Assembly (NCBI GenBank): GCA_018398765.1
Contig: JAHBMJ010005906.1
Span: forward strand, 17,040-60,640
From: Chromera velia
Taxonomy: Eukaryota; Sar; Chromeraceae
Direction: 5' to 3'
DNA length: 43,601 nt
In this document: one piece after another, positions 8,011-27,960 of the stretch
Numbering within the stretch: the stretch's first letter is position 1
How the letters are laid out: each line of letters starts with the position of its first letter
Notes under the pieces: model-generated
What the model saw: only the letters and a program-made list of their open reading frames with translations
Told to the model about the DNA's origin: nothing
The model's database searches: none
Position numbers and translations under genes: made by a program

Positions 8011-8388
8011 CTTTTTTGAAAACATTAAGGAGCTACAAAGGTGGACGGACAGATGCGAGGCGCATACGCATTGCAGCTTGTGTACTGACCCTGCCACTTT
8101 GGAGTGCTCCATTCCATGCACCCCTTTGCATGGAAGGTGCACCCATGCACCGTAACTGCATGCGTTCAAATGCAGATAGAACGCAAAAGGCACAGACGCA
8201 GTGGTTCATGCAGAAAGACAAGGAAAGCAGTCGAAAAAATTGACTCTCGAGCCAGCAGGGCAGACTTTCTCTGCATGGTTCTGCAGAATCAAGAGTCAGA
8301 GAAGCGATGCGGGTCACAATGGAGACATGCAGACCGGAAAGTTTCATCTATAGGGGTTGACCCGCACCTCTTCCTCCTCGATCAAGCT

Positions 8389-9454: not shown

Positions 9455-10226
9455 TCACAGACCTTCGGTTGTACATGCCTTCCTGAGTATACGGGCAACA
9501 GTTGGGCTCGCTTCGCATTTGATCCGCACCTCTCCCTCCTCGCATGCATGAAACATTTCGGGAGGAACGCCGTCCATGAATGAGAAGAGTCGCCCTTCAG
9601 AATCGATCCATTTTCCTTCTTGAAGGCATGCAGTTGAGTTCCTCCGCGTTGATGGTCGAGTCGTCAAGCAAGAGGACGGGAGAACAGGACTGAAACTATC
9701 GCAACGTGCGAGGCAGTCGTCTGAAAGTCTATCTGCCAAGACTGCTTGTTTGTCTCTTTCTCTCTCAGAGTCCCTCGGCTCGTCGGGACGCCTGTCCGAT
9801 CGTTTGATGTCTGTTCGTCCAAAGATACCGGGGGCGGAGGGCGCAGGGACGGGGGAGGGAAGCAAGGCGCAGGGACAGCGTGTTGGAGTCTGCGCGGAGG
9901 CGATGAAGGATCCCTGAGAAGAAGCTCCCTCTCTCTTTGTGCAGCAAAATATCGCTCAATCCGCCGCACAGAGGAAAAAAAGACTGCGTCTTCTCAGTGC
10001 GATGCACTCGCGACTCGAGGACCAGCAAGCTGTCAAGGAGCCCGTCTGGCCTGTACGAGTGGAGAAGGATTTGCTAATCAATGTCCAGACACTTCTTGTA
10101 GATGTGTAAGAGCTCCGCGAAGATGGCATCGTTCGGACGAGAAGTGGCTGCCTCACCTCGTATGAGCAGTGGAATGGAGGACTGACGCAGCCATTCCTTC
10201 ACCACTTCTCTCTCTGGAACAGACAT
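9455..10226 (-). CDS. Unknown multi-exon gene, divergent from the helicase block
   Basis: The start region reads MSVPEREVVKEWLRQSSIPL (ATG at 10226) and on through RPNDAIFAELLHIYKKCLDI to about 10083. A middle part (9970-9740) reads RRIERYFAAQRERELLLRDP followed by a proline-rich linker. The last part (9720-9455) reads STACLQEGKWIDSEGRLFSF and ends TVARILRKACTTEG with a stop at 9455. The three parts lie in different frames, as expected for exons, though I cannot fix every splice site. The start lies only a few bases from the left end of the helicase reading frame on the other strand. No family recognised. Confidence 0.45.
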
Positions 10227-10264
10227 GACCCTGCATGTGAGGGCTGGGGGAGAGCTCGGCTGCG

Positions 10265-11779
10265 TTGAAGACAAGAACTCTGGGGGGAGTCCACGTCGTC
10301 TTCACGAACTGCAGTGTAGAGCACGTGAACGCCTTTCTCTCAGGAAAGCAGTCATTCGTTCCTTTTCCTTGTTTCATGGGAGGGGCAGGCAGCGGAAAGA
10401 CGCATGTGTTCGCTCTGGCGATTGCTTATTGCATTTGTCGTGGTTTGCGTACATACGTTAATGCAATCGCAGCCCGTCGTGCACAAGCGTTTAATCAGCC
10501 GCACGAAGCCGCTTTCTTGAGACACGGTATTCCTGGTGACAATTTGACGGCTGCCAAGATGGCACAGTCTTTTTTTTCATCTGTGCAGAAGCATCCCATT
10601 GATTTGCACGTGTTACAGAGAGCTCATGTGTTGGGTAAAGACGAACTGGGTGCCTACTCTGCTCAATATTTTGCTGCTCTTGATTTATTTTTTCGCTCGA
10701 TAAAGCCAGGGCGAGAAGGAACGAAAGAGAGTCGTGTGCCTTTTGCAGGCAAACTCGTCATGGCAACAGGAGATCCTGTACAGCTGGAACCGTGCAGCGG
10801 TCGTCTGATTTGGAGTTCATCTCTCATGCTGAATTGTTTTCGAGTTCTTCCTTTTCGGCACACTGTGCGGTTTCAAGACCCGGTACAGAAAGAGCTGGTC
10901 GACTTACTTGGCAAGCCTTTTTTGAGGGAGGAAGAGGTGCAGAAAGTCGTTGACATTTTGCGAAGCCATACCCGCTTTGTTGAGGAAGAAACAGACATCC
11001 CAGCTGTTGACGAGGATTTCATGGTCTTTGCATACGGCCGCAAAGGTGCCACTGCCGCTCGGACCAAGAGGAAGGTGGAGCGTCTGCAGGAAATGCATGG
11101 GACGGGACAAGGAGTTACTTTTTGTGCAACAGATTACATCGTTGGCTCGTTGGCCACCGACGCGTGCGGTCGACCCACTTCGCTTGCCAGACATAAAGAA
11201 GCGCTCGACTACGGTTGTCGTGAAATGGACGAGTTGTACGTGATTGAAGGCATGGCAGTTGAATTTACCCAGAACAGAAATCCTGGGAAAGAAGGAGGTT
11301 TTACGCGGGGTCGTTTGGGCATTGTCGACTCAACACCGTCTCCCGACGCGACTGAGATTTATGTTCGAAAGGCTCCGCGGGGGTTCGTTGGTTTTAAGAG
11401 CGAGGCAGAACGACAGAAGGGTGAGTGGAGAAATTGGGAACTGACCAAAGTGAGACGAGCAAGAACCCGAGATTACGTCAAGGCAGATGGGCAGTACTTG
11501 CAGCGAGAGCAGTTCCCGATTCGTATTGCAGGGACCTCGACGCTGCATAAATTGATGGGAGACACAGTACCGAAGCTTGCGACTCGTCTCGATCCGCATG
11601 ACAAACAATACAAATATATTGGTCGCGTACCATGCTCCTTGAGTTTGTGTCTCGGCCTCGGTCGCTGTCTGATCTTTATTTTGTCGGTAAAAGGGAACGA
11701 AACCTTGAACATGTTGCTCATCTCGCTTGAAAGAACTCTGCTTGGATTGCCTACTCGATCAGACGGTTGGAATCTATGA
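10265..11779 (+). CDS. Pif1-type SF1 DNA helicase (N-terminal module of a helicase/GIY-YIG/J-domain block)
   Basis: An uninterrupted plus frame (open from 10241) with the SF1B/Pif1 motifs in order: Walker A GGAGSGKT (residues 39-46), motif II as KDELGAYSAQYFAALD (125-140), motif III MATGDPVQLEP (166-176), a RF-x-DP arginine region near 200, and HKLMGDTVPKLA (motif V position) near 425. Pif1 helicases unwind DNA 5'-3' and occur in replication, in Helitrons and in some viruses. No ATG precedes Walker A; the frame opens after a TGA at 10238, so the N-terminus is missing or lies in an unseen exon. Near 11600-11625 the frame shifts: the adjacent frame carries FVSRPRSLSDLYFVGKRERN, the expected final SF1B motif, and leads into the nuclease. 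No introns within 1.4 kb, unlike the neighbours. Confidence 0.85.
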   Translation: MKTRTLGGVHVVFTNCSVEHVNAFLSGKQSFVPFPCFMGGAGSGKTHVFALAIAYCICRGLRTYVNAIAARRAQAFNQPHEAAFLRHGIPGDNLTAAKMAQSFFSSVQKHPIDLHVLQRAHVLGKDELGAYSAQYFAALDLFFRSIKPGREGTKESRVPFAGKLVMATGDPVQLEPCSGRLIWSSSLMLNCFRVLPFRHTVRFQDPVQKELVDLLGKPFLREEEVQKVVDILRSHTRFVEEETDIPAVDEDFMVFAYGRKGATAARTKRKVERLQEMHGTGQGVTFCATDYIVGSLATDACGRPTSLARHKEALDYGCREMDELYVIEGMAVEFTQNRNPGKEGGFTRGRLGIVDSTPSPDATEIYVRKAPRGFVGFKSEAERQKGEWRNWELTKVRRARTRDYVKADGQYLQREQFPIRIAGTSTLHKLMGDTVPKLATRLDPHDKQYKYIGRVPCSLSLCLGLGRCLIFILSVKGNETLNMLLISLERTLLGLPTRSDGWNL

Positions 11780-13389
11780 TAGGTGAAAAGGGGACAGCGA
11801 GTGGCCCGTTCAAGTTTGATGTAAATTTTGACTATTTTCCTTTTGAGAGTCAGACAGAGAGCCTTTCTTTTTTCAATCGAGGGTGCGCGTACTTCCTGGT
11901 TTCCTCGAAGGACCCATCGCAGTGGTACATTGGAGAGACGGAGGACATGGTCAATCGGCTGCAAGAACATCACAAAGGAAGGGGGTCGTCATTCACTGCC
12001 CGGCCTCATTTGCGCTCATCATGGGTGGTGTATGGGGTGGTCACAGGGTTCCCGGGCATGGCAACAGACAAAGACAATGCGGCTTTACGGAAAAAATTTG
12101 AGAAAGCGATTCGCGGTCGATTGCAGTATAGAAAAAAGAAGGTCGGGCGTGTCTCCGCGATCGATGCATACACCGAAATGTGCGAAGAGGCGAAGGTGTT
12201 CAATGACAGGAAAGATTGCATGCCGATGAAAGATGAATCCGAAATGCGTTCTTTTCCGACCATGAATTTACTGTCAGTCCGGCTTGTGCGTGATCGTGCT
12301 GTAGCTGCGGCAATGCGTTCAGAAAGCGGTAACAAGGAAATGCATGAACGTGACTCACCCGATAGGGAAACGGATGCACCTGTCCCTTGTGGCAACGATG
12401 TTCACGATGCTTCGGGGACTGGCCGTTCGTCTCCCTGCACAGGTGTCAAGAATCACTCAAGTTCTCAGAAAGGCTCTCTGATCCCCCCTGATCCTTCCTA
12501 TGCTTTCTATGAAGATCAGACGATTCCTCCCTCTTTGCATGCCGCTGGGTGTGATTGTGCAATTTGCAAGAAAGACAGACAGCAACTGAATGAGTTGTTC
12601 GTTAACCGCTCCGCTGAGATGTCTGAGTTACATGACCGAGCAGACTCCTGGTGGGACACAAATTGTGATCTGTGGGCAGCAGAGAGAGCAGCGCGAGGAG
12701 CAGATGCAACCGACGGGGACGTGTTTCGTGACAGCGATTTCGAACCTGAGAGTGATATCGCGCTCACACCGGTAAGCGATGGAGTAATGGGGAGTGGGTG
12801 GGAGGGTGAAGATCCACGCGAGTACAAACATGAAGAAGGCATGGCTGATCAGCGTTTCAGAGACGGCAACGGCGCGGGGGAAGGGGAGGATGCTGGTTCT
12901 GATGGAGCTCCTGCACAAAGAGAAGACACGCAGGAGGGAAGGGAAGGTACAATGGGGGATACATCAGATGAGAATTCCGACAAGCAGTCGGCTCGTGGGA
13001 ACGCATCTGGTGCGCAGGCAGGAAGCTGTGAACAAAACCAGACGTCCCGCAGTAAGAAGGGGGGGGAGGGGCCAGTGGCTGGGTTGCATGTCAAGTCGAC
13101 AGCGAATTTTGTTTTTGATGAAGAACGGGGTGGGTGGGTGTTCAAGCAAACGGGCAGGGCTCCAGAGACAAAGTACGAGAGGGATCAATTGTTGGATGAA
13201 CTTGAGATGGAACGAGAAGCTGCCTATCATGAAGAGGAAGTCGAAGAGGATCTGGAGGATGAGGAGTTTTTTGCAGACGATAGTGAAGAGGAAAAAGAAG
13301 CGTGGAAAGAGTATCGGGGAGAGATGCCGGATGTGCAGAGACTTGCAACCCCATACCGTAGGAGAGCTGCGGAATTTTTTCATCAGTGA
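11776..13389 (+). CDS. GIY-YIG nuclease with long acidic C-terminal region
   Basis: From the first ATG (11776) residues 35-110 hold a GIY-YIG fold: CAYFLVSSKDPSQWYIGETE with DMVNRLQEHHKGRGSSFTAR next. The Tyr pair, the Arg of NRLQEH and the following Gly-Thr context fit metal-dependent GIY-YIG endonucleases. A candidate metal-binding CDCAICKK lies near residue 255. From about residue 300 the protein is strongly acidic and disordered, ending EEFFADDSEEEKEAWKEYRG. The frame actually extends upstream through a TGA (11728-11730) into the last helicase motif, and downstream the TGA at 13387-13389 is followed in frame by the J-domain protein. So this may be the middle of one polyprotein. Role inferred: target or intermediate cleavage for a mobile element. 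Confidence 0.8.
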   Translation: MIGEKGTASGPFKFDVNFDYFPFESQTESLSFFNRGCAYFLVSSKDPSQWYIGETEDMVNRLQEHHKGRGSSFTARPHLRSSWVVYGVVTGFPGMATDKDNAALRKKFEKAIRGRLQYRKKKVGRVSAIDAYTEMCEEAKVFNDRKDCMPMKDESEMRSFPTMNLLSVRLVRDRAVAAAMRSESGNKEMHERDSPDRETDAPVPCGNDVHDASGTGRSSPCTGVKNHSSSQKGSLIPPDPSYAFYEDQTIPPSLHAAGCDCAICKKDRQQLNELFVNRSAEMSELHDRADSWWDTNCDLWAAERAARGADATDGDVFRDSDFEPESDIALTPVSDGVMGSGWEGEDPREYKHEEGMADQRFRDGNGAGEGEDAGSDGAPAQREDTQEGREGTMGDTSDENSDKQSARGNASGAQAGSCEQNQTSRSKKGGEGPVAGLHVKSTANFVFDEERGGWVFKQTGRAPETKYERDQLLDELEMEREAAYHEEEVEEDLEDEEFFADDSEEEKEAWKEYRGEMPDVQRLATPYRRRAAEFFHQ

Positions 13390-13401
13390 CTCCCTGAAGG
13401 C

Positions 13402-13737
13402 ATGAGTGCAGAAGAGTTTTTCAGAAAGATGGGCGGGGAAGAGGAGGACAGGGAAGAGGAATTTGATGAAGAGGATGCAGGGCCTGTGGGCAGCGACATG
13501 TCTTCTCTCGAGGAAGCGTTGACCTTTTTCGATCTCTCTTGTTTCCCTCAAAATAAGGAGGAAGTCCGTGACTTGAAGCGACGGTACAGGCAACTGGCCT
13601 TACTTCTTCATCCGGACAAGAATGTGGACGCGTCACCTGCAGAAAAGGAAGAAAGGGAAAGCGCCTTCAAGAAAGTCAACTCTGCATATGCATATGAATG
13701 CATCGTGCGCGAACTGCGTGCGAGAGGGCTCAGCTGA
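13402..13737 (+). CDS. J-domain (DnaJ-like) protein or C-terminal J domain of the upstream protein
   Basis: The 111-residue frame has an acidic start followed by a J domain: EVRDLKRRYRQLALLLHPDK with NVDASPAEKEERESAFKKVN and SAYAYE. The HPD tripeptide that stimulates Hsp70 ATPase is intact, and helices II and III are in place. The frame is the same as that of the GIY-YIG gene, which stops only 12 bases earlier, and the acidic composition is continuous across that stop. It is therefore either a separate small co-chaperone or the C-terminus of a helicase-nuclease-J protein. Confidence 0.75.
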   Translation: MSAEEFFRKMGGEEEDREEEFDEEDAGPVGSDMSSLEEALTFFDLSCFPQNKEEVRDLKRRYRQLALLLHPDKNVDASPAEKEERESAFKKVNSAYAYECIVRELRARGLS

Positions 13738-14195: not shown

Positions 14196-15026
14196 TACAG
14201 AGACTCTCACGGTCTCTATCTGCACTCTCAGTCACATAAAATGTATCCCCTCACTCACAGACCCTCTCAATCTCTATCTGCGTTATCGGTCACACAAACT
14301 GTCTCCTCTCACTTACAGATCCACAGAAGCTCTATCTGCATTCACAGCCACACAAACTGTCTCCTCTCTCTCTCAGACCCGCCAGTTGCTATCTGCACTC
14401 TCAGTCGGACAAACGCTCTCCCCTGTCTGTCAGACCCACACAATCTCTATGTGCACTCTCAGCCACACAAACGTTCTCTCCTGCCTCTTGGACCCAAACA
14501 GTCTCTATCTGCATTATCAGTCAGAAAAACGCTCTCGCCTGACTCTCAGACCCACACAGTCTCTATCTGCACTCTCAAGCACCTGACTCTCAGGCCCACG
14601 CAGTCTCTCTTTGCACTCTCATTCACACAAACACTCTCTCCTGACACACGGACCCACACAGTCTCTTTCTGCATTCTCAGTCAGACAAACGCTGTCCTCT
14701 CACTCTCAGACCCACACTGTCTTTTTCTGCATTCTCAGTCACACAAACGCACTCCCCTCACTCTCAGACCCACACAGTCTCTTTCTGCATTCTCAGTCAC
14801 ACAAACGCTGTCCCCTCACTCTCAGACCCACACAGTCTCTTTCTGCATTCTCAGTCACACAAACGCACTCCCCTCACTCTCAGACCCACACAGTCTCTTT
14901 CTGCATTCTCAGTCACACAAACGCTGTCCCCTCACGCTCAGACCCACACAGTCTCTTTCTGCATTCTCAGTCACACAAACGCTTTCCCCTCACTCTCAGA
15001 CCCACACAGTCTCTTTCTGCATTCTC
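14196..15026. repeat. 58-bp minisatellite
   Basis: About 14 tandem copies of a 58-bp unit containing TCTGCATTCTCAGTCACACA and CTCAGACCCACACAGTCTCT. Copies are diverged at the left end and nearly identical from 14650 to 15010, which points to recent expansion there. Because 58 is not a multiple of three and the unit lacks stops, a long frame (14082-15098) passes through it, but this is an artefact. A (GA)n tract follows at 15077-15094. Confidence 0.9.
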
Positions 15027-15154
15027 GAAGCAAAGAGACAGACAACATACAGTCATATAGACACACACACGCACAGAGAGAGAGAGAGAGAGAGGTGAGA
15101 GGTGATCTCCCTTTCGTTGGCCCGCGATTGAGGTGGGCCCTTTCTTTTTCCCAA

Positions 15155-25843: not shown

Positions 25844-26164
25844 CCGACAGACCACCGACAAACCACCGGAAACCCAACGACAAACCACCGACAGACCACG
25901 GATAAACCACCGGAAAACCAACGACAAACCACCGACAGACCACCAACAAACCACCGACAGACCACCAACAAACCACCGACAAACCACCGACAGACCACCA
26001 ACAAACCACCGACAGACCACCAACAAACCACCGACAGACCACCAACAAACCACCGACAAACCACCAACATACCACCAACAAACCACCGACAGACCACCAA
26101 CAAACCACCGACAATCCACCTACAAACTACCGACGAACCGTCGACGAACCACCGACAGACCACC
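25844..26164. repeat. 11-bp minisatellite (ACCACCGACAA)n
   Basis: Nearly thirty copies of an 11-bp unit, ACCACCGACAA, alternating with ACCACCAACAA and ACCACCGACAG, often in a 22-bp or 33-bp higher-order pattern. The array begins right after a C-run containing the only N of the window (25843). It lies between the N-terminal and DUF659 exons of the hAT-like gene and keeps several frames open artificially. Confidence 0.95.
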
Positions 26165-27394: not shown

Positions 27395-27960
27395 GGCTGA
27401 TGTTTTTCCATTGCAGGGATGAGGTAGTCTTTGCAGAAGACCATGTACTTGTCTGGAGTGAGCCGTTTGCTCTGTTTACCTCCTCTCTCAACCTGGTTGC
27501 CTTCCTGCGTCCCCGTGTGTTTGCCTCCTCTCTCAACCTGATTGCCTTCCTCCGTCCCCGTCTGTTTGCCTCCTCTCTCAACCTGGTTGCCTTCCTCCGT
27601 CCCCGTCTGTTTGCCTCCTCTCTCAACCTGGTTGCCTTCCTCCGTCCCCGTCTGTTTGCCTCCTCTCTCAACCTGGTTGCCTTCCTCCGTCCCCGTCTGT
27701 TTGCCTCCTCTCTCAACCTGGTTGCCTTCCTCCGTCCCCGTCTGCATGGTTGCCTTCTTCTCTCCCGAGGCGCCGTTTCTTGCCACAGCACTCCGCTCAG
27801 CATGTCATCCCAACCTTCTGAGGCAAGGGGGGGGGCGAAATCGAAACCTCCCTCCGACTCTCCATCCGAGGACGACGAATAGTTCTCCCCATGAAATGAG
27901 CCGTACTGACGGAGACGTCCGTCCCGAGTAAACATTGCCCGGCGCAATGGCATTGCCCTT
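27355..27960 (-). CDS. Exon with six in-frame 15-residue repeats
   Basis: The minus strand carries a 45-bp unit repeated about six times, so every frame repeats with a 15-residue period. In one frame the unit is QTGTEEGNQVERGGK and the frame continues with RLTPDKYMVFCKDYLIPAME to 27355. In another the unit is RGRRKATRLREEANR and is preceded by AMFTRDGRLRQYGSFHGENY and SSSSDGESEGGFDFAPP. Which frame is used cannot be decided; the upstream protein-like part favours the basic frame, the downstream part the polar one, so a frameshift across the array is possible. Confidence 0.4.
27475..27744. repeat. 45-bp coding minisatellite
   Basis: About six copies of a 45-bp unit (plus strand CTGTTTGCCTCCTCTCTCAA and on), nearly identical to each other. 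The period is a multiple of three, as expected for an array held in a reading frame. Confidence 0.9.

What the first reader, a model, noticed from the sequence alone, without database searches (positions are those of the whole stretch)
10241..13737. Intronless Pif1 helicase + GIY-YIG nuclease + J-domain block
Three domains that I do not know as a standard set follow one another on one strand in about 3.5 kb without introns, in a locus where every other recognisable gene is cut by introns and lies mostly on the other strand. Seen: Walker A GGAGSGKT, GDPVQLEP, a YIGET nuclease core, and an HPD-bearing J domain. Known: Pif1 helicases occur in Helitrons and viral replication, GIY-YIG nucleases in Penelope-type retroelements and homing elements, J domains with replicative helicases in polyomavirus T antigen. 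Inference: the block is the coding part of an undescribed mobile element or integrated replicon in which the nuclease opens the target or intermediate and the helicase drives replication or strand transfer, with chaperone recruitment by the J domain.
Basis: partly seen in the sequence, partly recalled or inferred. Interest (0 to 1): 0.88.

Follow-up and report, generated by a model that had tools for sequence, protein, structure and literature searches.

The report
Decayed helicase–nuclease–J-domain mobile element gene
In the alga Chromera velia this stretch looks like the remains of one gene, probably from a mobile element, that joined a DNA-unwinding motor, a DNA-cutting enzyme and a chaperone-recruiting domain, a combination for which we found no match outside this alga.

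Summary
The three domains are real, but they look like one broken gene, not three: Pif1-type helicase, GIY-YIG nuclease (nearest solved relative SLX1), acidic linker, C-terminal J domain. The helicase changes frame near 11600; TGA codons lie at 11728 and 13387. Other Chromera velia copies support the joins: C3422 has helicase end and GIY-YIG in one 368-aa frame, C2428 has linker and J domain in one open frame. Linker and J domain evolved under purifying selection (dN/dS 0.28, 0.18–0.45, 282 codons). A minisatellite of 58-bp period follows the window, C2428, C3422 and C52 copies; a J-domain relic (C2277) and a fragment (C895) lack it. The subfamily without J domain shows a shared 5' edge in four contexts and a derivative without coding match: a mobile-element pattern. 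Helicase followed by GIY-YIG is already known from Tlr1-like helicases of polinton-like viruses. No polymerase was recognised nearby, no packaging ATPase was found in the genome, and a genome search for the polymerase family did not complete. J domain and minisatellite are not mentioned in the four papers checked. Best reading: a degenerate copy of a new mobile-element family, perhaps of Tlr1-like origin. Mobility of the J-bearing subfamily itself is inferred.

The parts
10241..11779 (+). open frame with the Pif1-type helicase, first part (Walker A to the HK motif); the tail of this frame after about 11600 is out of register with the family
10379..10402 (+). Walker A, GGAGSGKT
   Evidence: sequence
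10769..10792 (+). helicase motif III, GDPVQLEP
   Evidence: sequence; motif name recalled
11537..11560 (+). helicase motif STLHKLMG (STVHKQQG in C3422)
11617..11727 (+). end of the helicase (SR motif) in the frame of the nuclease
11728..11730 (+). in-frame TGA between helicase end and GIY-YIG; no stop between these two domains in C3422
11731..13386 (+). open frame: GIY-YIG nuclease plus acidic linker
11890..12111 (+). GIY-YIG domain; nearest solved relative by sequence is SLX1
13387..13389 (+). in-frame TGA between linker and J domain; frame open across this point in the C2428 copy
13390..13737 (+). C-terminal J domain frame (Pfam match 13561-13692, HPD present)
14213..15026 (+). 58-bp minisatellite at the 3' side (rows 14213-14577 and 14582-15026); homology to C2428 ends at 15041

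Best explanation
The block is a recently broken copy of a Chromera velia mobile-element gene. Its ancestor coded one protein: Pif1-type helicase, SLX1-like GIY-YIG nuclease, acidic linker, C-terminal J domain, followed by a 58-bp minisatellite near or at the 3' end of the element. Shown: domain identity and order; helicase-nuclease fusion in a sister copy; linker-J continuity in another; purifying selection on linker and J; dispersed copies sharing the 3' array, and in one subfamily the 5' edge. Inferred: that all four parts were one protein at one time; the nuclease nicks or cuts branched DNA (flaps, forks, junctions, as SLX1 does) at the donor or target; the helicase drives strand displacement so that a copy is made and inserted; the J domain recruits host Hsp70 to take apart the protein-DNA complex or to fold the large protein. 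A Tlr1-like (polinton-like virus or transpoviron) ancestry of the helicase-nuclease part is plausible but not shown.
For: Helicase end and GIY-YIG in one 368-aa frame in C3422; the helicase end of the window in the frame of its nuclease. Linker plus J in one frame in C2428, 92% identical over the J frame. dN/dS 0.28 (0.18-0.45) over 282 codons, J frame alone 0.21 (0.08-0.50). About 23 nonsense changes would be expected in 1155 codons under neutrality along one branch; 2 TGA and 1 frame change are seen, so the break is recent or partly an assembly error. Period-58 arrays: of 71 tandem-repeat rows in 169 kb, 6 had period 58 and all 6 lay in the window, C2428, C3422 and C52 copies. Window-C2428 homology stops at the end of the array. 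5' edge shared by C3422, C52, C895 and C1179 with different flanks. C1179 has the 5' segment and an array like that of C3422 but no coding match; C895 keeps three short pieces. An SLX1 chain is the best PDB match for the GIY-YIG part of both subfamilies.
Against: The 5' edge is known only for the subfamily without J domain; the J-bearing subfamily has two good copies plus one relic (C2277), and only part of the C2428 copy could be read, so its helicase and nuclease were not seen. In C3422 the Pfam scores are below the cut-offs (GIY-YIG 19.8 bits against 22.6; helicase end only UvrD_C_2 at E 0.14), so its helicase rests on alignment to the window (tblastn E 3.9e-5 across stops). No target-site duplications or inverted terminal repeats found. 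C3527 shares sequence with C3422 also upstream of the 5' edge. Two 58-bp arrays (C3854, C1957) have no coding match better than E 0.24 in the readable part of 20 kb around each. C895 and C2277 have no period-58 array in the 10 kb fetched. Purifying selection would also fit a host gene.
Confidence: 0.6

Rival explanations
1. It is a relic of an integrated polinton-like virus or transpoviron-like replicon: the C-terminal part of a Tlr1-like pPolB-SF1 helicase-GIY-YIG protein. (This can be true together with the best explanation, as its origin.)
For: Same order, SF1 helicase then C-terminal GIY-YIG, in Tetrahymena Tlr1, also an alveolate. Helicase-polymerase genes of polinton-like viruses in the dinoflagellate Oxyrrhis are fragmented too.
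Against: No polymerase-like coding upstream: best upstream coding score 8.6, against 12.0 downstream and 12.4 in a control stretch, and no Pfam match at E 0.01 in eight + strand ORFs upstream. Packaging ATPase PF04665: 0 matches in the genome. No relative in three scans of viral contigs, which reach close relatives only. The J domain is not mentioned in four papers on these elements. The genome search for the polymerase family PF03175 did not complete.
Confidence: 0.3
2. It is a host repair or replication gene (Pif1-SLX1-like-J fusion) that was duplicated in segments and then lost in this copy.
For: Purifying selection; low copy number; an annotated gene model exists (P0001).
Against: Copies of the sister subfamily lie in different flanks with a common 5' edge and a common array, and a derivative without coding match exists; no homologue found beyond C. 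velia.
Confidence: 0.15
3. It is a Helitron derivative: Helitrons carry Pif1-type helicases, and other Pif1-like helicases of Helitron look are present in this genome.
For: Pif1 helicase; a hairpin near the shared 5' edge, 9-bp stem in C3422 and C52, 8-bp in C895 and C1179.
Against: The helicases of L006-L013, which I take from recalled features to be Helitron-type, are strong PF05970 matches (126.5-175.4 bits) but gave no phmmer match to the window helicase at E 10 or better. No Rep domain was recognised in the ORFs scanned.
Confidence: 0.07
4. Three unrelated host genes happen to be neighbours.
For: Three separate open frames in the assembly.
Against: Two of the joins are single frames in other copies, and GIY-YIG and linker share one frame here.
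Confidence: 0.03

Closest known systems
Tlr1-like helicase (pPolB-SF1 helicase with C-terminal GIY-YIG or HNH) of polinton-like viruses, Tetrahymena Tlr1 and transpovirons
   Same: SF1/Pif1-type helicase followed by a GIY-YIG nuclease in one protein; present in alveolates; fragmented relatives in a host genome (Oxyrrhis)
   Different: No polymerase, vOTU or terminal-protein part recognised; packaging ATPase family not found; adds an acidic linker and J domain; 58-bp minisatellite at the 3' side
SLX1 structure-specific endonuclease
   Same: Closest solved relative of the GIY-YIG part by sequence, including the PW..(V)..GFP stretch
   Different: SLX1 is a separate host protein (recalled); here the domain follows a helicase; similarity is modest (best E 6.4e-7 for the profile; 0.0077 for the window alone, with a UPF0213 protein second at 0.017)
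Helitron
   Same: Pif1-type helicase in a eukaryotic mobile element (recalled)
   Different: Different helicase lineage in this genome; no Rep recognised; no Helitron ends shown
Polyomavirus large T antigen
   Same: J domain in one protein with a helicase (recalled, not tested)
   Different: J domain is N-terminal there and the helicase is of superfamily 3 (recalled)
Penelope-like retroelements
   Same: GIY-YIG nuclease in a eukaryotic mobile element (recalled)
   Different: No reverse transcriptase was recognised in the ORFs scanned

Membership tests
Tlr1-like helicase of polinton-like viruses | SF1/Pif1-type helicase domain | tested here: met
   PF05970 24.9 bits, just under the cut-off, 26.6 bits over the cut-off; PDB PIF1
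Tlr1-like helicase of polinton-like viruses | C-terminal GIY-YIG or HNH nuclease in the same protein (some members) | tested here: met
   one frame in C3422; same frame as the helicase end in the window, with a TGA between
Tlr1-like helicase of polinton-like viruses | N-terminal protein-primed PolB palm domain | tested here: inconclusive
   nothing recognised within about 3 kb upstream; the PF03175 genome search did not complete; the copies may be truncated
Tlr1-like helicase of polinton-like viruses | helicase groups with Tlr1-like helicases in a tree | not tested
   no Tlr1-like sequence could be fetched; viral contig scans gave no relative
Polinton-like virus | A32/FtsK-type packaging ATPase in the genome | tested here: not met
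   PF04665: 0 matches, 2 candidates scored
Polinton-like virus | double jelly-roll capsid genes and terminal inverted repeats | not tested
   no capsid search was made; no systematic search for inverted repeats around the copies. Of 101 inverted pairs between 6000 and 17500 of the window, the 25 longest shown are GT/CA-type
Helitron | Helitron-type helicase lineage | tested here: not met
   no phmmer match at E 10 or better between the window helicase and frames of L006-L013; that these are Helitron helicases is recalled
Helitron | HUH Rep domain | tested here: inconclusive
   not recognised in the Pfam scans of selected window ORFs; complete copies are lacking
SLX1 | GIY-YIG domain of SLX1 type | tested here: inconclusive
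   an SLX1 chain is the best PDB match, but a UPF0213 protein ranks second; other GIY-YIG types may be thinly represented in the PDB
SLX1 | C-terminal RING/PHD-type zinc finger (recalled) | tested here: not met
   no such Pfam match at E 1 after the GIY-YIG domain
J-domain protein | J domain with HPD motif | tested here: met
   PF00226 E 2.5e-9; HPD in window and C2428

The most novel reading that the evidence does not exclude
Chromera carries an undescribed class of mobile element whose only enzyme is a single helicase-SLX1-like nuclease-J-domain protein: it needs neither transposase, integrase, Rep nor reverse transcriptase, moves by cutting branched DNA and helicase-driven strand displacement with Hsp70 help, and ends in a self-amplifying 58-bp minisatellite.
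Probability: 0.2. Interest if true: 0.88.

Novelty: new variant of a known kind. Interest (0 to 1): 0.6.

Why it matters
If right, a chromerid, a close free-living relative of the apicomplexan parasites, holds a mobile-element family built round a helicase–nuclease protein, and one branch has added a J domain kept under selection. That would make testable how elements without a known transposase copy themselves, and whether recruiting Hsp70 is a recurrent trick of replicating DNA parasites. It could also show what remains when a Tlr1-like viral replication protein outlives its virus. In practice, the public gene model of this locus (P0001) leaves out the Walker A motif, the nuclease and the J domain.

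Tried and rejected
Three independent genes: rejected because two joins are single frames in other copies.

Helitron membership: helicase lineage differs.

Finding relatives outside C. velia: three protein database searches returned only C. velia proteins (P0001; P0002). Searches scored only the 8000 candidates sharing most words, and the length limits may hide long fused proteins. Viral contigs gave none in three scans, bacterial and archaeal genomes none in one, phage records one weak match at E 0.9.

Polymerase family PF03175 in the genome: not completed.

Structure: one prediction of the C3422 frame from a single sequence gave mean pLDDT 37.1, too poor for a fold search; none was run. The window helicase job was never accepted.

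The test 'every 58-bp array lies next to a coding copy' failed for C3854 and C1957. The array search scored only 4 candidate contigs and did not return the arrays of C3422, C52 or C1179, so arrays are undercounted. A comparison of the array units of the two subfamilies gave 45 against a maximum of 43 in 300 shuffles, but the shuffles destroy dinucleotide structure, so I give it little weight.

The MAFFT alignment of three frames (A1) misplaces the helicase parts and was not used. Alignment A4 also misplaces part of its rows; the PDB search made with it is supporting evidence only. PHROGs and NCBIfam added nothing for helicase or nuclease beyond chance-level matches.
Full report
Host. The window lies in the genome of Chromera velia CCMP2878: a UniRef protein of that organism is 100% identical over the matched part, and the window is contig C3977:17040–60640 of the held assembly. 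C. velia is a free-living photosynthetic relative of apicomplexans (abstract of PMC4501334, seen in the listing).

What is there. The frames are related in an unexpected way. The first frame (10241–11779) carries Walker A, GDPVQLEP and STLHKLMG. The last helicase motif, with the SR pair, is not in that frame but in the one that also holds GIY-YIG and J domain. Aligned to C3422, that piece of the second frame scores 66 (0 of 2000 shuffles reach it), while the tail of the first frame scores 19 (1676 of 2000 shuffles reach it). The second frame is interrupted twice by TGA, at 11728 and 13387. No ATG precedes the Walker A motif in the first frame, so the frame is incomplete at its start or has an upstream exon. 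Upstream, no codon usage like that of the block was found (best score 8.6; downstream 12.0; control 12.4). The public gene model P0001 joins 10760–11422 to 12442–13386 by a predicted intron of about 1 kb, and so leaves out Walker A, the end of the helicase, the nuclease and the J domain. Whether RNA reads support that intron I could not test.

Other copies. A genome search with the start of the nuclease frame finds two places besides the window: C3422 (45%) and C52 (39%, with a stop). In C3422 one open frame of 368 aa contains the end of the helicase and the GIY-YIG domain. This indicates that the two domains were one protein in this family, although Pfam alone would not settle it (GIY-YIG 19.8 bits against a cut-off of 22.6). 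C3422 matches the window helicase only from residue 223 on and has three stops upstream of the 368-aa frame. C52 is 87% identical to C3422 over 304 positions with two stops. The J domain has two further matches: C2428, 92% identical, and C2277, 48% with stops. In C2428 the linker and the J domain are one open frame. Only part of that copy could be read, so whether helicase and nuclease precede it is unknown. The DNA just downstream of the J frame matches only the window and C2428 (2 candidates scored).

Selection. Between window and C2428, over 282 codons, dN is 0.087 and dS 0.309, ratio 0.28 (bootstrap 0.18–0.45); linker alone 0.31 (0.18–0.52, 173 codons), J frame alone 0.21 (0.08–0.50, 109 codons). 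Linker and J domain were therefore translated and selected for much of the time since the copies split. If the window copy had drifted freely over half that distance, about 23 nonsense changes would be expected in 1155 codons; two in-frame TGA and one frame change are seen. The break is recent, or partly an assembly error. The C3422–C52 pair gives 0.60 (0.34–1.11) over 300 codons: weak or no constraint, as for relics.

Element anatomy. Between 434 and 834 bp downstream of the coding frame of the window, C2428, C3422 and C52 copies lies a minisatellite of period 58. In 169 kb tested, 71 tandem-repeat rows of period 20 or more were found; all 6 of period 58 were in these four loci. The J relic C2277 and the fragment C895 have none in the 10 kb fetched. 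A search with the window array finds two more arrays, C3854 and C1957, without a coding match better than E 0.24 in the readable part of 20 kb around each. The homology of window and C2428 ends at the end of the array, window 15041. A 286-bp segment in front of the helicase remnant of C3422 recurs, whole or in part, at six other places. In C3422, C52, C895 and C1179 it begins at the same base pattern (AACAARAATAT) with different flanks; C3527 also has it but shares upstream sequence with C3422. C1179 combines this segment with an array like that of C3422 and has no coding match in the 3.3 kb fetched. C895 has the segment and two short coding pieces. This is the pattern of a mobile element with deletion derivatives. 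It is shown for the subfamily without J domain; for the J-bearing one it is inferred from the common array and the nuclease–helicase kinship. No target-site duplication was seen in the junctions printed, and no inverted copy of the segment near the 3' ends. A hairpin lies near the 5' edge.

Domain types. An SLX1 chain is the best PDB match for the GIY-YIG part: profile E 6.4e-7 with the top four all SLX1, C3422 alone 0.00077 with the top four all SLX1, window alone 0.0077 with a UPF0213 protein second at 0.017. The helicase matches PIF1 structures weakly (0.0048; 0.00088 with the four-row profile, whose alignment is partly misplaced). It is not close to the other Pif1-like helicases of the genome: 14 PF05970 matches were listed, one of them the window, and no phmmer match to frames of L006–L017 was found.

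What is known. [quoted passage not shown] PMC11071308 (passages) describes Tlr1-like helicases as polymerase–helicase fusions with C-terminal GIY-YIG or HNH domains. PMC12721341 (passages and section 15) repeats this and describes fragmented polinton-like viruses in a dinoflagellate. So helicase–GIY-YIG is a known order. The terms DnaJ, J domain, Hsp70, minisatellite, tandem repeat and SLX1 do not occur in the main texts of PMC3671162, PMC4642659, PMC11071308 and PMC12721341. One search for GIY-YIG, DnaJ, helicase and mobile element found 0 papers; one for transposon, GIY-YIG, minisatellite and helicase found one fungal genome paper, seen as a listing only. Chromera does not occur in the main texts of PMC12721341, PMC3671162, PMC11071308, PMC10120064 or PMC4642659. 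The genome paper reports about 30 Mb of transposable elements in Chromera (PMC4501334, passages); its supplementary TE table was not available to me, so an existing repeat entry for this family is not excluded.

Mechanism. Most likely, and inferred: the nuclease cuts branched or nicked DNA, the helicase displaces a strand, and copying by host polymerases spreads the element; the J domain brings Hsp70 to remodel the complex. An alternative is that the present protein is the surviving C-terminal part of a Tlr1-like viral replication protein. I could not separate these, because no Tlr1-like sequence could be brought in for a tree and the polymerase search did not complete.

Verdict. The finding is real but different from its description: one broken fused gene in a small family that behaves, at least in its sister branch, like a mobile element. 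New, as far as searched, are the J domain with its selected acidic linker, the 58-bp array and the host. Interest 0.6; new variant of a known kind.

Noticed in passing
C52 (L020/L021), host exons after the 58-bp array: UniRef model P0002 joins a fragment of the element to downstream exons that look like a host gene on the same strand: the C52 copy lies directly in front of it.
   Followed up: partly
L006-L013 and L014-L017: Two other groups of Pif1-like helicases in C. velia, the first resembling Helitron helicases (recalled features), the second another type; four of the twelve have stops inside the match.
   Followed up: partly
C3854:14085-14560 and C1957:13453-14170: 58-bp arrays of the window type without a recognisable coding copy nearby.
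   Followed up: partly
window 8357-8380 and 9519-9542: Two copies of a 24-base stretch, 92% identical, that read EE(G/E)EVR(I/V)K on the minus strand: perhaps duplicated host exons beside the block.
   Followed up: no
window 25844-26164 and 27471-27744: Further tandem arrays of period 22/55 and 45.
   Followed up: no
C3422 copy, helix after the GFPG stretch: Where the window GIY-YIG has KKFE, C3422 and C52 have KKFQ; this may be the metal-binding residue of the family (position recalled), so that subfamily may be inactive.
   Followed up: no
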